Assembly: GCA_017540585.1 (NCBI GenBank)
Contig: JAFYAT010000114.1
Coordinates: 1 to 33,659 of the forward strand
Source: Bacteroidaceae bacterium
Lineage (GTDB): Bacteria; Bacteroidota; Bacteroidia; Bacteroidales; Bacteroidaceae
Reading direction: 5' to 3'
DNA length: 33,659 bases
Positions 1 to 3,479 of the stretch are shown piece by piece. A program made the position numbers and the translations under genes. How positions within the stretch are numbered: the stretch's first letter is position 1; each line of letters starts with the position of its first letter. Under the pieces are notes generated by a model. It made no database searches. It was not told the origin of the DNA and saw only the letters and a list, made by a program, of their open reading frames with translations.

Positions 1-882
1 AATGGTATAGTGCAGATAACCAACTACTATCCATTTGGCGGTATTCTTAATGAATCATTCAATAGAGTTGATTATCAGAATAAGTTGTACAATGGCAAGG
101 AATATGACCGTATGCATGGATTGAATCTTTATGATTACTCTGCTCGTCAGTATGATCCTGCAATAGGTCAGTTTACAAGTATTGACCCACGATGTGAAAA
201 GTACTACCACATCAGTCCGTATGCTTATTGCGCTGGTAATCCTGTGAAGTATGTTGATCCGGATGGAAGGGATGCCGTTGCTGTAATTGATGAACAAAAT
301 AAGATTGTTAGGATAAAAGCGAATTATTATGTTAATACCAAAGGGGTATATAAAAGAGGTACTGATAAATTATTATGTGCTGGGTATTCGCCACAAGATA
401 TAAAATCAATGAACAAAATGATATCAAATCTTAACAAGGAAGGCTACGTGATTAGTAGTGGAGCTTGTAAAGGATTCTCATTGCAATTTGATATGCAATT
501 TGTTGATGGCGGAGATTTCATGAATTGTTCACAAAAAGCAACAAGTGATTATTATAATACAGATAATGGCGATATAAATATTGGAAATGTTATTCAAAGA
601 AATTATGAGACGGATGATGTTGATTTGTCTCCAAAGCCTGATGGTAGTCAAGTTGGAGGGTATACAAAACCGTACAATCTAATAATGATGAATGCAAGCT
701 CTGATTGTAATGGCGACAACTTGGATAATAATACAAATCGATTGCATGAGTTATTTCATACATTAGGTTTTGACGATATGCCAGGAAGTAAAGGTATCAT
801 GGATTACTCTACTTTAAGGATTAATCAGAATGATATAGATTCGATACTCAAATATATAGAACAAATGAATAAACAAAAATAA
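1..882 (+). CDS. RHS-repeat protein, C-terminal part, with zinc metalloprotease toxin domain (5' truncated by window)
   Basis: The reading frame is open to the window edge, so this is only the 3' end of a longer RHS/YD-repeat gene. The first ~88 residues (counted from the GTG at 10) are the conserved RHS core end: YNGKEYD, GLNLYDYSARQYDP, GQFTSIDP and NPVKYVDPDGRD at 77-88. In RHS polymorphic toxins this core encloses a variable toxic tip. The ~200-residue tip carries HELFHTLGFDD: H246, E247, H250, G253 and D256 match HExxHxxGxxD, the metzincin zinc site with Asp as third ligand as in snapalysin, followed by a possible Met-turn GIMDY (M264). I infer a secreted or contact-delivered protease toxin; the target is unknown. 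The next gene starts one base after the stop and is a likely immunity gene. The locus is AT-richer than the housekeeping genes to the right, which suggests transfer. Confidence 0.85.
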   Translation, partial: NGIVQITNYYPFGGILNESFNRVDYQNKLYNGKEYDRMHGLNLYDYSARQYDPAIGQFTSIDPRCEKYYHISPYAYCAGNPVKYVDPDGRDAVAVIDEQNKIVRIKANYYVNTKGVYKRGTDKLLCAGYSPQDIKSMNKMISNLNKEGYVISSGACKGFSLQFDMQFVDGGDFMNCSQKATSDYYNTDNGDINIGNVIQRNYETDDVDLSPKPDGSQVGGYTKPYNLIMMNASSDCNGDNLDNNTNRLHELFHTLGFDDMPGSKGIMDYSTLRINQNDIDSILKYIEQMNKQK

Positions 883-883
883 T

Positions 884-1504
884 ATGTGTACAAAAAAAAT
901 CATTATGCTTTTGTTGTTTGCTGTCATATTTCCTGTTTCTTATGCTCAAGAAAGGGTTGTGACTCATGGCGATATGTATTTTTTTTATGGTATTTTAGGA
1001 GGGAAAAAACATAATGAAAGATTTCAAATATCTTGGCTGATTCCAGGAATGTCTAATCGTAATATCTTGAAAGATATGGATTTTAGTAATGAAGATGATT
1101 TTATATATCGATTTAATGACTTGACATATTATATTGACTATGGTCAGTCTGGTTTAGTAAGATTAATGAAGGAATGGAATGAGTTCGATAATTATTCAAA
1201 GTGGGATTCTATTTATTGGAACGTTAAAGACATTTTTAAGTCCGTAAAAGTTCCTGAATATAAGATTATATTAGGTGATTCAACTGAATTGTATTTGAAG
1301 GTTTACAAGTTAAATGGTGAGTATTGGAAAAATGATAAGTTATTTATCGGTTCCAGAAATCCATATCGCAGTAAATATTATCAAAGTGCAGAATCAAAAG
1401 GTATGTATACTCTTATAAATCTTTATTCTGCAAAAGGAGTGACTTTAAAGAAACGACAAATAAAGCGATTAAAAGGAGTTTTATCATGTTGTTTGGTCGA
1501 GTAA
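884..1504 (+). CDS. Secreted protein, putative immunity protein for the RHS metalloprotease toxin
   Basis: This 206-residue protein is not a family I recognise. It starts with a clear Sec signal peptide (MCTKKIIMLLLFAVIF, cleavage likely after SYAQ), so the mature protein should be periplasmic or surface-bound. There is no lipobox. The rest is rich in aromatic and charged residues with no recognisable catalytic motif. The ATG at 884 lies one base after the stop of the RHS gene, so the two are almost surely co-transcribed. In polymorphic toxin loci the gene directly behind the toxin tip usually encodes the cognate immunity protein. That role is inferred from position only. Export of the partner would fit a toxin that acts in the periplasm. 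Base composition is as AT-rich as the toxin tip. Confidence 0.65.
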   Translation: MCTKKIIMLLLFAVIFPVSYAQERVVTHGDMYFFYGILGGKKHNERFQISWLIPGMSNRNILKDMDFSNEDDFIYRFNDLTYYIDYGQSGLVRLMKEWNEFDNYSKWDSIYWNVKDIFKSVKVPEYKIILGDSTELYLKVYKLNGEYWKNDKLFIGSRNPYRSKYYQSAESKGMYTLINLYSAKGVTLKKRQIKRLKGVLSCCLVE

Positions 1505-1536
1505 CACCTTTTTTTGAAGTCTTTACTATAATGACA

Positions 1537-1583
1537 GCTACTTCCAGTCTCATAAACATCGTGTTTATGAGGCAGGAAGTGGC
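1537..1583 (+). terminator. Strong stem-loop behind the RHS/immunity genes (terminator or repeat end)
   Basis: The arms CTCATAAACA (1549-1558) and TGTTTATGAG (1562-1571) are perfectly complementary around a three-base loop, and ACTTCC / GGAAGT plus GC / GC extend the stem after a small internal loop. It lies 33 bases behind the stop of the putative immunity gene, as expected for a terminator, but only a short T-rich stretch follows, so a repeat or mobile-element end is also possible. Confidence 0.5.
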
Positions 1584-1690
1584 AATTTGTTTTAGTGTTA
1601 AAAATTTATTACTGTCCGCTAAACATGCATTAGAGCCTAAACACACTCGTTTTCTTGTTGGACAAGCCTCTTTAGAAAGGTGTTAATGGC

Positions 1691-1867
1691 TGTCCGCTAA
1701 AAAATCAGCTTGAAAGATGACAAAAGATACACTATAGATTGTTATATTTGTCATTTAGAGCCTCTATTTTGTTGTTTTCCCAATATATTGGGGCATATAT
1801 ATATCCTGTATATCGGCTGTCCGAGGAAATAATATCTTTGAAAACGCTTTCAGATTTTTAGCGGACA
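1691..1867. mobile_element. Small non-coding element with terminal inverted repeats (MITE-like or IS remnant)
   Basis: The left end TGTCCGCTAAAAAATC at 1691-1706 is mirrored by the right end at 1847-1867, whose reverse complement reads TGTCCGCTAAAAATC; the match continues to a shared TGAAAG/CTGAAAG after a few unmatched bases. The 177-bp interior has no gene. It contains a perfect 14-bp palindrome CCCAATATATTGGG at 1779-1792. I see no clear target-site duplication. The size and ends fit a miniature transposable element or an internally deleted insertion sequence; the parent family cannot be named from this sequence. Confidence 0.6.
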
Positions 1868-2008
1868 CCAATATTAAAAATTTTTACATTGTACATTGTC
1901 TCCTAGTATAGACTAAGTACTGACTTATATGAGACTATAATGAACTGTTATCGGAGGCAATTTTGATAATGCCTAATTGTCTTTAGTAGTTATAATTGTC
2001 GTTTAGTG

Positions 2009-2062: not shown

Positions 2063-2323
2063 ATGACTGCAATACAATTGAAAGCTGAAGTTATGCATAA
2101 CATAAATGTTGTGGCTGAGGATGAAAACATGTTAAATCGTGTCGCAAAATACTTGCGAAAGTTAGTTGCTGAAAGGCAAACGGATTCAACAGAGATGACC
2201 AAGGAGGCTTTTTTTGCTAAGTTGGAACGAGGAGAGAAAGCTTATGAACGAGGCGAATGTCATGAGATTCTCCCTGGTGAAGATTTGACAACATATCTAA
2301 GACGTAGGGGGTATGACATATAA
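2063..2323 (+). CDS. Antitoxin of a YoeB/Txe-type toxin-antitoxin pair
   Basis: This 86-residue protein begins MTAIQLKAEVMHNINVVAED and is of the kind that precedes YoeB/Txe toxins in Bacteroidales. The N-terminal part is probably the DNA-binding and dimerisation region. The acidic and basic C-terminal part (ERGEKAYERGECHEILPGED) is likely the segment that wraps the toxin. I chose the ATG at 2063, not the upstream ATG at 2006, because a well-formed promoter covers 2009-2040. The toxin gene begins three bases after its stop, which is the usual tight coupling. In this family the antitoxin neutralises the toxin and represses its own promoter. The family assignment rests mainly on the neighbour, so it is less certain than for the toxin. 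Confidence 0.75.
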   Translation: MTAIQLKAEVMHNINVVAEDENMLNRVAKYLRKLVAERQTDSTEMTKEAFFAKLERGEKAYERGECHEILPGEDLTTYLRRRGYDI

Positions 2324-2326
2324 ATA

Positions 2327-2587
2327 GTGAATACTCCTGAAGCTGATGAGGATTTGGTAAGACTCGCCAAGAACGAGCCAAAGGTGTTCCTTAAAGCCAT
2401 GAAGTTTATAGAGGAGTTGCGCGAGCATCCGAAGACGGGAACTGGTCATCCCGAACCTTTGAAGGGTAAGCCAGAAGGACGGTGGAGTCGTGCGTTGACA
2501 AAAAAGCATAGGATGGTTTATCGCATTTTTGCTGAGAAAGTGGTGATATTGATTCTTTCTTCCTATGGTCACTATGATGATAAGTAA
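2327..2587 (+). CDS. YoeB/Txe family mRNA interferase toxin
   Basis: This is an 86-residue RelE-fold toxin of the YoeB/Txe branch, which cuts mRNA on the ribosome when freed from its antitoxin. The core GTGHPEPLKG, WSRALTKKHRMVYR and GHYDDK matches the family. E43, R62, H82 and Y83 line up with the catalytic E46, R65, H83 and Y84 of E. coli YoeB, so it looks active. The start is the GTG at 2327, directly after the antitoxin stop (TAA at 2321-2323); no upstream in-frame start is possible. The N-terminus is a few residues shorter than usual. Transcription comes from the promoter at 2009-2040 and probably ends at the hairpin 2641-2678. Confidence 0.9.
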   Translation: MNTPEADEDLVRLAKNEPKVFLKAMKFIEELREHPKTGTGHPEPLKGKPEGRWSRALTKKHRMVYRIFAEKVVILILSSYGHYDDK

Positions 2588-2687: not shown

Positions 2688-3479
2688 TTAGTTAAATATG
2701 TTGTTGAGTATGTGTGCGAGACGGAGTCCACCATAGAGGAACTGTTGTTCGATGACTGGTGCCCATGTGCGGACATACTCGAATGAGAGGTTGTCTGTTG
2801 TTGATGTACCAGCATATATTGCTTCTGCGTGTACATGACTCTGGCGTGCCCAGTCGAGGAGTGTACCGCTGGTGATGGAAGAAATGAACTGCGGGTCGTT
2901 GTTGATGTCGAGTTCTTCTGCCCATTCTGTATGACTCCAGTCGTGTGCACGACTTGTCAGTTGTCCGTCCCACATAGAGTGGAGTGATGTATCGTGGTTG
3001 AAGAACTTGACACGTACCGTGTTACCACCTTTGTCCTCTGGGTATCCGAGGTGGAGTGGCTGGTGAAGGTCGCCCATGAGATGTGTAATGAACTTGAGCG
3101 CGAGTGCCTTTTCTTCCTTTGAACGGCTGTTGCTCCTCAGTATCTCTATCTGGCTGTTAATGGCGGTGATGACGTTCTCGCAACTGTTGACGAAGTCGGT
3201 TACATCCTTTCCTTTGGCAATGTCAAGGTAGTGCCATGTCTTGGAGTAACGGTACTCTGGCATGTTGCTTGCATCGTCCATCCATGGTGCCCAATATACA
3301 ATGGTACGACCGTCGAGCAGTTCGTTTATCTTCTGCCTTGCCGTTGGTGTGAGGTGTCGCTGTGCAATGGCAGCGGTGATGTCGTGACCTTTCTTGTCCC
3401 ATGAGAAACCTGGTAGAGTGGTCATGGTTGCCGCAATAGTGAGCATTGCGGTCCTCAATACAAATTTAATCTTATTCAT
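2688..3479 (-). CDS. S1/P1-type nuclease, secreted
   Basis: A 263-residue protein with an N-terminal signal peptide ending before W27. The S1/P1 family cleaves single-stranded nucleic acid and 3'-phosphomonoesters using three zinc ions. All nine zinc ligands of nuclease P1 can be placed: W27 (which becomes the mature N-terminus), H32, D68, H83, H133, D137, H143, H167 and D171; the HLMGDLHQPLH stretch is diagnostic. The spacing (for example H133-D137-H143) equals that of P1. It therefore looks intact and likely scavenges nucleic acid in the periplasm or outside the cell. It is last in the minus-strand block, separated from the S41 peptidase gene by a 220-bp palindromic repeat, so it may have its own promoter, though I see no TAnnTTTG box. 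Confidence 0.92.
   Translation of the reverse strand: MNKIKFVLRTAMLTIAATMTTLPGFSWDKKGHDITAAIAQRHLTPTARQKINELLDGRTIVYWAPWMDDASNMPEYRYSKTWHYLDIAKGKDVTDFVNSCENVITAINSQIEILRSNSRSKEEKALALKFITHLMGDLHQPLHLGYPEDKGGNTVRVKFFNHDTSLHSMWDGQLTSRAHDWSHTEWAEELDINNDPQFISSITSGTLLDWARQSHVHAEAIYAGTSTTDNLSFEYVRTWAPVIEQQFLYGGLRLAHILNNIFN

What the first reader, a model, noticed from the sequence alone, without database searches (positions are those of the whole stretch)
1..1504. RHS toxin with HExxHxxGxxD metalloprotease tip and a secreted partner
Seen: an RHS core end (NPVKYVDPDGRD) followed by ~200 residues with H246, E247, H250, G253, D256 and a possible Met-turn at M264, then one base later a signal-peptide protein of unknown family. 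Known: polymorphic toxins place the immunity gene right after the toxin tip; metzincins with Asp as third zinc ligand occur in the snapalysin group. Inferred: a metzincin-type RHS effector with a periplasmic immunity protein. Peptidase toxins are less common than nuclease tips, and immunity by an exported protein implies a periplasmic target. This is the best candidate for an undescribed toxin-immunity pair in the window.
Basis: partly seen in the sequence, partly recalled or inferred. Interest (0 to 1): 0.72.

Follow-up and report, generated by a model that had tools for sequence, protein, structure and literature searches.

The report
Exported protease toxin and its antidote
A gut-type Bacteroidota bacterium carries what looks like a zinc-protease weapon at the end of an RHS gene, followed by a secreted antidote gene, and related bacteria keep copies of the antidote without the weapon; no laboratory test was done here.

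Summary
The contig opens inside an RHS gene whose last ~204 residues carry HELFHTLGFDD and GIMDY; one base later a 206-residue secreted-type protein begins. Neither matches Pfam alone.

Relatives explain most of it. I found 19 intact tips in Bacteroidota, the window's included; each is followed within about 20 bases by a 167-228-residue protein, 18 of 19 with a strongly hydrophobic start. Most partners link into one fast-evolving family, and tip and partner similarities correlate (r 0.77, 17 pairs). Partner genes also occur alone; one in the window's genus is 69% identical to the window's partner and looks kept by selection. That is how immunity genes behave.

The tip links by profile to other RHS tips whose short, motif-centred PDB matches are metzincins in all 60 rows shown. 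The third zinc position is Asp in three of 17 members, window included, and His in seven; seven lack the metzincin Gly and Met.

Best reading: a Sec-exported metzincin-like toxin with a periplasmic immunity protein. New variant of a known kind (RHS metallopeptidase toxins).

The parts
1..267 (+). End of the RHS-associated core, cut by the contig edge (match to TIGR03696 at nt 25-267)
   Evidence: TIGR03696 E 2.4e-18 over residues 9-89; the genome search with that family gives 25-267
268..882 (+). Toxin tip, 204 aa plus stop; metzincin-like zinc-protease domain (fold inferred)
   Evidence: Family alignments A2, A3; hhalign link to A5, and A5 to metzincins; weak Astacin matches in 6 of 17 members, not in the window's
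745..777 (+). HELFHTLGFDD: HExxHxxGxxD zinc motif
   Evidence: Position computed; HExxH also kept in relatives found without the motif
793..807 (+). GIMDY, candidate Met-turn
   Evidence: G, I and Y the same in 17 of 17 rows; Met in 10, Gly in 7
884..1504 (+). Partner, 206 aa, secreted-type: predicted periplasmic immunity protein
   Evidence: 24.7 bits against a partner profile built without it; best shuffled copy 7.4; solitary homologue 69% identical
884..946 (+). Signal-peptide-like N terminus of the partner (about 21 aa, boundary judged by eye)
   Evidence: Most hydrophobic 9-mer 3.46; sequence

Best explanation
A toxin-immunity pair at the end of an RHS gene. Inferred steps: the RHS protein is exported by Sec, as its relatives appear to be; the RHS shell carries and releases its C-terminal tip; the tip folds as a small metzincin-like zinc peptidase (the two His of HExxH, Asp259 as third ligand, Glu250 as base) and cuts an unknown envelope protein of a competing bacterium. 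The gene one base downstream makes a secreted protein that binds and blocks the tip in the periplasm, protecting producer and kin. Shown: motif, conserved pairing, co-divergence, solitary partners, distant profile relation to metzincins. Not shown: fold, zinc, proteolysis, binding, delivery, target.
For: Motif and pair in the sequence. Tip family: 16 loci confirmed among 369 pattern-matching stretches of genome contigs, all with Bacteroidota titles. 19 of 19 intact tips with a neighbour ORF at -17 to +20 nt. Partners: phmmer links 16 of the 19 tip partners to at least one other; the window's, unlinked there, scores 24.7 bits against a profile of 12 others, shuffles at most 7.4. Mantel r 0.77 for 17 pairs, 0.82 for 16, p 1e-4 in 10,000 permutations. 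Solitary partners: five genes at four loci in three genomes, no tip or RHS-core motif in those 4.9-8.5-kb loci; no tip in genome G1122 at E up to 1. Window partner against its solitary homologue: 69% identity, dN 0.21, dS 1.78. Metzincin link: A3 to A5 99.5% probability, 98.8% without the RHS end, 0.1-0.4% in five column shuffles; A5 against the PDB: the 60 rows shown of 191 are all enzymes I recall as metzincins, best E 3.9e-4, 1c7k (recalled as snapalysin) among them. Signal-peptide-like starts on relatives of the toxin.
Against: The family's own profiles reach no metzincin in the PDB (A3; A6); the Astacin matches are weak and absent for the window's tip. The A5 matches to PDB chains are short and centred on the motif (about 24-58 positions), and A5 members were picked because the tip profiles hit them, so the A3-A5 score is partly by selection. 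Seven of 17 members lack the metzincin Gly and Met. Much of the HExxH invariance in L008-L023 is by selection, as one search pattern held it. The window tip has a long branch, 2.24, and keeps 19 of the 24 columns that are invariant in the other 16 rows, the most losses of any row. L024's partner does not match the partner profile; L019's and L023's score only 4.0 and 5.3 bits and join through L020. Co-divergence can come from linkage alone. Genome G1122 is only 65% complete.
Confidence: 0.7

Rival explanations
1. The tip is a zinc hydrolase toxin but not a protease: it cuts peptidoglycan cross-links or another envelope bond. Pair and immunity logic stay the same.
For: HExxH is conserved but its surroundings vary by clade, with Gly and Met lost in 7 of 17; a periplasmic meeting place would fit a wall target.
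Against: The linked group A5 matches only metzincin peptidases among the 60 PDB rows shown (short matches), and Astacin is the only Pfam model hit by more than one of the 17 tips.
Confidence: 0.15
2. The partner is not an antidote but a chaperone, export helper or second toxin subunit.
For: It follows the tip in 19 of 19 intact cases and both are export-type.
Against: It occurs without the tip in three genomes of the same family, once inside an array of other small secreted-type genes, and a solitary copy shows dN well below dS. A helper has no obvious reason to stay alone.
Confidence: 0.1
3. The HExxH domain releases or matures the RHS protein instead of poisoning a target.
For: PVC-type toxins carry releasing metallopeptidases (PMC3482391, passages).
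Against: The domain is the extreme C terminus, after the RHS core, with no further domain to release; it appears with its partner behind different RHS ends, as a cassette.
Confidence: 0.05
4. This particular copy is a displaced or dying cassette: the family is a toxin family but the window's tip is no longer used.
For: The 5' part lies off the contig; the branch is long; five of 24 columns invariant in the other 16 rows are changed here, more than in any other row; a broken cassette exists in a relative (L005).
Against: The frame is intact, and H249, E250, H253 and the Gly, Asp and Met positions of the Asp group are kept; the partner frame is intact too.
Confidence: 0.15

Closest known systems
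Tox-MPTase1-5, RHS-linked metallopeptidase toxins (Zhang et al. 2012, PMC3482391, passages seen)
   Same: HExxH domains at the C terminus of RHS proteins, families 1-3 also in Bacteroidetes, with Sec (T2SS) or TcdB/TcaC-type export among their routes.
   Different: Their table rows give HExxH plus a few residues and no immunity family ('-'). Tox-MPTase2 (PF15638) matches none of G000, G047, G075, and no Tox-MPTase model appears in hmmscan of the tip or of 17 members. I found no model of Tox-MPTase1, so identity with it is not excluded.
VgrG2b C-terminal domain and PA0261 (Tpe-Tpi; PMC6899460, passages seen)
   Same: Zinc metallopeptidase toxin acting in the periplasm, small downstream immunity gene with a signal peptide, immunity proteins that vary strongly, some predicted lipoproteins.
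   Different: A thermolysin-like gluzincin with Glu as third ligand, on a T6SS spike; here an RHS tip with an HExxHxxGxx(D/H) site linked to metzincins; no TssC seen, but without a positive control.
Serralysins with their periplasmic inhibitors; snapalysin (recalled; PDB names)
   Same: Metzincins; snapalysin uses Asp as third ligand and serralysin producers carry an adjacent periplasmic inhibitor (both recalled).
   Different: Those are not RHS tips; the partner profile finds no PDB chain at E below 0.1.
Orphan immunity in Bacteroidales (rAID; PMC12247911, abstract and outline seen)
   Same: Immunity homologues kept without the toxin, in arrays.
   Different: The ones studied there act against T6SS effectors and have SUKH domains; here a signal-peptide family with no Pfam match below E 0.05 in 17 members.

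Membership tests
RHS polymorphic toxin | RHS-associated core directly before a variable C-terminal tip | tested here: met
   TIGR03696 at residues 9-89, then the tip; N-terminal RHS repeats are off the contig
RHS polymorphic toxin | Immunity gene right after the tip | tested here: inconclusive
   A gene is there, one base later, and in 19 of 19 intact tips including the window; immunity activity itself not tested
Metzincin (MA(M) clan) | HExxHxxGxx(H/D) | tested here: met
   Window HELFHTLGFDD; 10 of 17 members keep it, 7 do not
Metzincin (MA(M) clan) | Met-turn below the zinc site | tested here: inconclusive
   Met 14 residues after the second His; Met in 10 of 17; geometry unknown
Metzincin (MA(M) clan) | Sequence relation to known metzincins | tested here: inconclusive
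   Direct profile search of the PDB negative; indirect through A5 positive but with short, motif-centred PDB matches; Astacin hits in 6 of 17, best 1.1e-4, none for the window
Metzincin (MA(M) clan) | Metzincin fold | not testable with these tools
Tox-MPTase2 (PF15638) | Match to the Pfam model | tested here: not met
   0 of 3 genomes at E up to 1; none in hmmscan of the tip or of 17 members
Tox-MPTase1 (Zhang 2012) | Match to that family's alignment | not testable with these tools
   No model of it was identified in the libraries
VgrG2b/Tpe metallopeptidase | Match to DUF4157 | tested here: not met
   No DUF4157 among the Pfam hits of the tip or of 17 members
VgrG2b/Tpe metallopeptidase | Glu third ligand on a later helix (gluzincin) | not testable with these tools
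   No structure; Asp or His sits at motif position 11 in 10 of 17, which argues against it for those

The most novel reading that the evidence does not exclude
One exported toxin family has passed through three zinc-site designs (His, Asp, and a form without the metzincin Gly and Met) while keeping one fast-evolving antidote family, and solitary antidotes have spread as defence among Bacteroidota. It would be an active-site arms race within a single metzincin-derived bacterial weapon.
Probability: 0.35. Interest if true: 0.7.

Novelty: new variant of a known kind. Interest (0 to 1): 0.55.

Why it matters
RHS tips are best known as nucleases (recalled), and the published table of RHS metallopeptidase toxins lists no immunity partner for Tox-MPTase1-5 (PMC3482391). 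Here a metzincin-like tip comes with an exported partner family and with solitary partners, so a small, ordinary co-expression test could show an envelope-targeting protease weapon and its antidote in Bacteroidota, and what the protease cuts would become directly testable.

Tried and rejected
Single-protein searches gave little: Pfam and NCBIfam with the window proteins (RHS core only), PADLOC (one weak 'Effector' match to the partner, E 0.01, residues 5-65, its signal-peptide part and beyond, not followed), PDB with either protein (best E 0.68 and 1.9) and with the L017 tip (none), PHROGs with four proteins, plasmids and phages, viral contigs, and genome contigs with the single tip. Partner search with the single sequence found only the window's own genome (1 of 399); the alignment was needed.

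Rejected: a TonB-like C-terminal part in the long solitary partner of L048, which I suspected by eye; Pfam shows nothing at E up to 0.01. SprA of the type IX system in the window's genome: the weak 57-position hit lies in a 717-aa frame that does not look like SprA; SprA is full-length in G047 and G075. T6SS TssC: 0 of 3 genomes, but no positive control rang, so nothing follows. Terminator scan of 1-2600: none found; promoter-like sites as many as in shuffles.

Recounted against the other 16 rows it keeps 19 of 24.

L025 and L030-L037 were met as looser hits of the tip profiles. I kept them out of the family counts; seven of them make alignment A5. Left out of A5: L036 (my script gave a wrong start), L037 (match to model positions 1-31 only) and the second tip in L025.

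Full report
What is there. The window is contig C37 of a 3.62-Mb, 149-contig, 86% complete assembly and begins at its base 1. Its first ORF is open at the contig edge and codes 293 aa to the stop at 882; the next starts at 884 and codes 206 aa. Residues 9-89 match the RHS-associated core at E 2.4e-18. The remaining ~204 residues carry HELFHTLGFDD (H249 to D259; nt 745-777) and GIMDY (nt 793-807). Neither protein matches Pfam.

Relatives of the tip. A search with the tip found 4 of 399 genomes of the same family, the window's included: two intact tips in G047, one in G075, and a broken piece in G393 (L005) that has lost the first His of the motif and is still followed by a partner. With the four-row alignment A2, genome contigs gave 16 loci among 369 pattern-matching stretches, all titled as Bacteroidota taxa, including Prevotella, Flavobacterium davisii, Bizionia, Flammeovirga and Sediminibacterium. 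Two of these, L008 and L011, are the named records of tips already found (L003 and L006; L004). A2 in a phylum sample gave 3 of 395 genomes: the window's, L024 (clear family member) and L025 (looser). A3 in a class sample gave 8 of 395, the window's included; the other seven hold eight looser matches, L030-L037. No relative was confirmed in viral contigs, plasmids or phages.

A caution on conservation. One of the two peptide patterns contained NR[IL]HE[IL]FH, so part of the HExxH invariance in L008-L023 is by selection. Tips found without that pattern keep HExxH as well: L003, L004, L006, L024, and the looser L025 and L030-L036 (sequences).

The partner. I counted 19 intact tips: the window, two in L008, one each in L009 to L023 (15), and L024. 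In all 19 an ORF of at least 80 aa starts between -17 and +20 nt of the tip's stop (the script looked from -30 to +200 and took the first) and codes 167-228 aa (L018's runs off its contig). L012 and L015 carry identical tips and partners in one chromosome, and L020 and L022 are close kin in one assembly. Eighteen of 19 partners have a strongly hydrophobic segment (9-mer mean at least 2.4) near the start; the exception, L021 (1.76), has a longer frame with a hydrophobic stretch further upstream. L016 carries a strict lipobox pattern and L017 a loose one.

The partners diverge so fast that the window's, used alone, finds only its own genome among 399. Most are nevertheless linked. At E 0.01 phmmer links 16 of the 19 to another partner (in a set of 21 sequences); the window's, L008b's and L024's are unlinked there. 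A profile of 12 others scores the window's partner at 24.7 bits against at most 7.4 for its shuffled copies. L008b is weaker, 7.1 against 5.2, but matches the window's partner at 5.6e-5 in a 20-sequence set. L020 scores 15.4; L019 and L023 only 4.0 and 5.3, joining through L020; L024 scores -3.0 and is not shown to belong. Pairwise similarity of tips and of partners is correlated: r 0.77 (rank 0.61) over 17 pairs, 0.82 without L022, p 1e-4. Linkage alone could produce this, so it shows that they travel together, not that they bind.

Partners without tips. The partner alignment found matches in 2 of 21 near relatives and 6 of 379 genomes of the family, the window's own included in both. Solitary partners lie in G1122 (two adjacent), G178 and G023 (two loci); the 4.9-8.5-kb loci fetched hold no tip or RHS-core motif. 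G1122 has no tip at E up to 1, though it is only 65% complete; G178 and G023 are not among the matches of the tip search. The match in G039 is weak (E 8.2e-4, one stop) and was not followed. One G1122 gene is 69% identical to the window's partner over 197 residues, with dN 0.21 and dS 1.78: purifying selection, with synonymous sites near saturation. One G023 copy sits in an array of other small secreted or lipoprotein-like genes, judged by eye; the other lies near a restriction-modification gene, and the G178 copy near an Abi_2 gene on the other strand. This is the pattern of immunity genes kept as defence; orphan immunity arrays are described in gut Bacteroidales (PMC12247911, abstract).

What the tip is. 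Six of 17 members hit Pfam Astacin weakly (best 1.1e-4), and four hit LegP, a zinc metalloprotease model, in NCBIfam (best 0.0018); the window's tip hits neither. Profiles of the family itself reach no metzincin in the PDB. The link is indirect. A second set of Bacteroidota RHS tips with HExxHxxG[LI]xH (A5, seven sequences) aligns to the family at 99.5% probability, at 98.8% when the shared RHS end is removed, and at 97.8% for the N-terminal part alone without RHS end or HExxH; five column-shuffled controls and the partner alignment give 0.1-0.4%. These A5 tips had been found with the family's own profiles, so the score is not independent; the first hits had E 3.4e-13 to 4.1e-5 per genome. The A5 profile hits 191 PDB sequences at E up to 10; the 60 shown are matrix metalloproteinases, serralysins, ADAM and ADAMTS enzymes, archaemetzincins and 1c7k (recalled as snapalysin), best E 3.9e-4, mostly over some 25-50 positions around the motif. 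Six of the seven A5 members also hit Pfam Peptidase_M10 (best 3.7e-5). I take the tip as metzincin-like with about 70% confidence.

Variation of the zinc site. On the tree, three members have Asp at motif position 11 (window, L008b, L009), seven have His, and seven have F or Y instead of the Gly and GIG instead of GIM. The His group and the third group each need one change; support is 83/81 and 94/98. The Asp group is weakly supported (47/70) and the window's branch is long, 2.24. The window keeps 19 of the 24 columns invariant in the other 16 rows, the zinc-motif His and Glu among them; the five changes are the most of any row. Asp as third ligand is known from snapalysin (recalled). What serves as third ligand in the third group is open.

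Export. The two other RHS-core genes in the genome are long (2004 and 2085 aa frames) and begin with signal-peptide-like segments. Of six relatives whose tip ORF may be complete at the 5' end, five begin with such a segment by eye, four of them in open frames of only 319-335 aa; L018 is unclear. So toxin and partner probably meet in the periplasm. Exported partners are common for other tips in the same loci (7 of the 9 with a next gene, out of 11), so this is a feature of the cassette class. How the toxin reaches a neighbour is unknown: SprA is full-length in G047 and G075 but not seen in the window's genome, and a TssC search found nothing without a positive control.

Known kinds. RHS-linked metallopeptidase toxins are described (Tox-MPTase1-5; PMC3482391, passages), without immunity families in that table. 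The best functional parallel is VgrG2b-PA0261, a periplasmic metallopeptidase toxin with a secreted, variable immunity protein (PMC6899460, passages); it is a gluzincin on a T6SS spike. The TANFOR paper (PMC7073777, outline and passages) describes another Bacteroidetes toxin class; words beginning with metallo, protease or peptidase do not occur in its text. The listings of my searches (titles and abstract starts only, beyond the papers named) showed no RHS metzincin toxin with this partner; subscription papers are mostly absent from that library and only listed rows were seen.

Noticed in passing
window 2063-2587 (+): A small gene (2063-2323, no clear Pfam match) followed by a YoeB-type toxin gene (2327-2587; Pfam YoeB_toxin 4.4e-16): probably a type II toxin-antitoxin pair just downstream of the finding.
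   Followed up: partly
window 2688-3479 (-): S1/P1 nuclease family protein (PF02265, 2.5e-57).
   Followed up: no
window 1505-1900: Stretch after the partner with a 22-nt inverted repeat (arms 1537-1558 and 1562-1583) and several direct and inverted copies of a CTGTCCGCTAAA-like element; may be remnants of a mobile element or a terminator.
   Followed up: no
L025 898-1275; L034 2175-2594; L032 lipoprotein-like gene next to its tip: Some HExxHxxG[LI]xH RHS tips are followed by a small exported protein that in L025 carries a carboxypeptidase regulatory-like domain (PF13715, 7.5e-9); L034's matched no Pfam family and L032's was not scanned, though they look alike by eye. Possibly a separate immunity family for related tips.
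   Followed up: partly
L025 1736-2335: A second RHS tip, cut by the locus end, with HEILHTMGLMD: another HExxHxxGxxD motif in a different tip.
   Followed up: no
L038 (G000:C111), end of the 2004-aa RHS frame on the minus strand: Another RHS tip of the same genome carries HEYGH, so a second HExxH tip may exist in this genome.
   Followed up: no
L058 whole (G023:C26): An array of about eight small lipoprotein-like or secreted-type genes (by eye) around a solitary partner, looking like a bank of immunity genes.
   Followed up: partly
L048 2829-4130 (-): A 434-aa protein that matches the partner profile (29 bits), with a long extension of no Pfam family.
   Followed up: partly
L012 and L015: Two copies of the cassette with identical tip and partner about 7 kb apart in the Flavobacterium davisii chromosome, between repeated flanking genes: probably a recent duplication.
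   Followed up: partly
L032, minus strand, frame of 313 aa: A neighbouring RHS tip with SHSMGG, a lipase-like motif, next to a lipoprotein-like gene.
   Followed up: no
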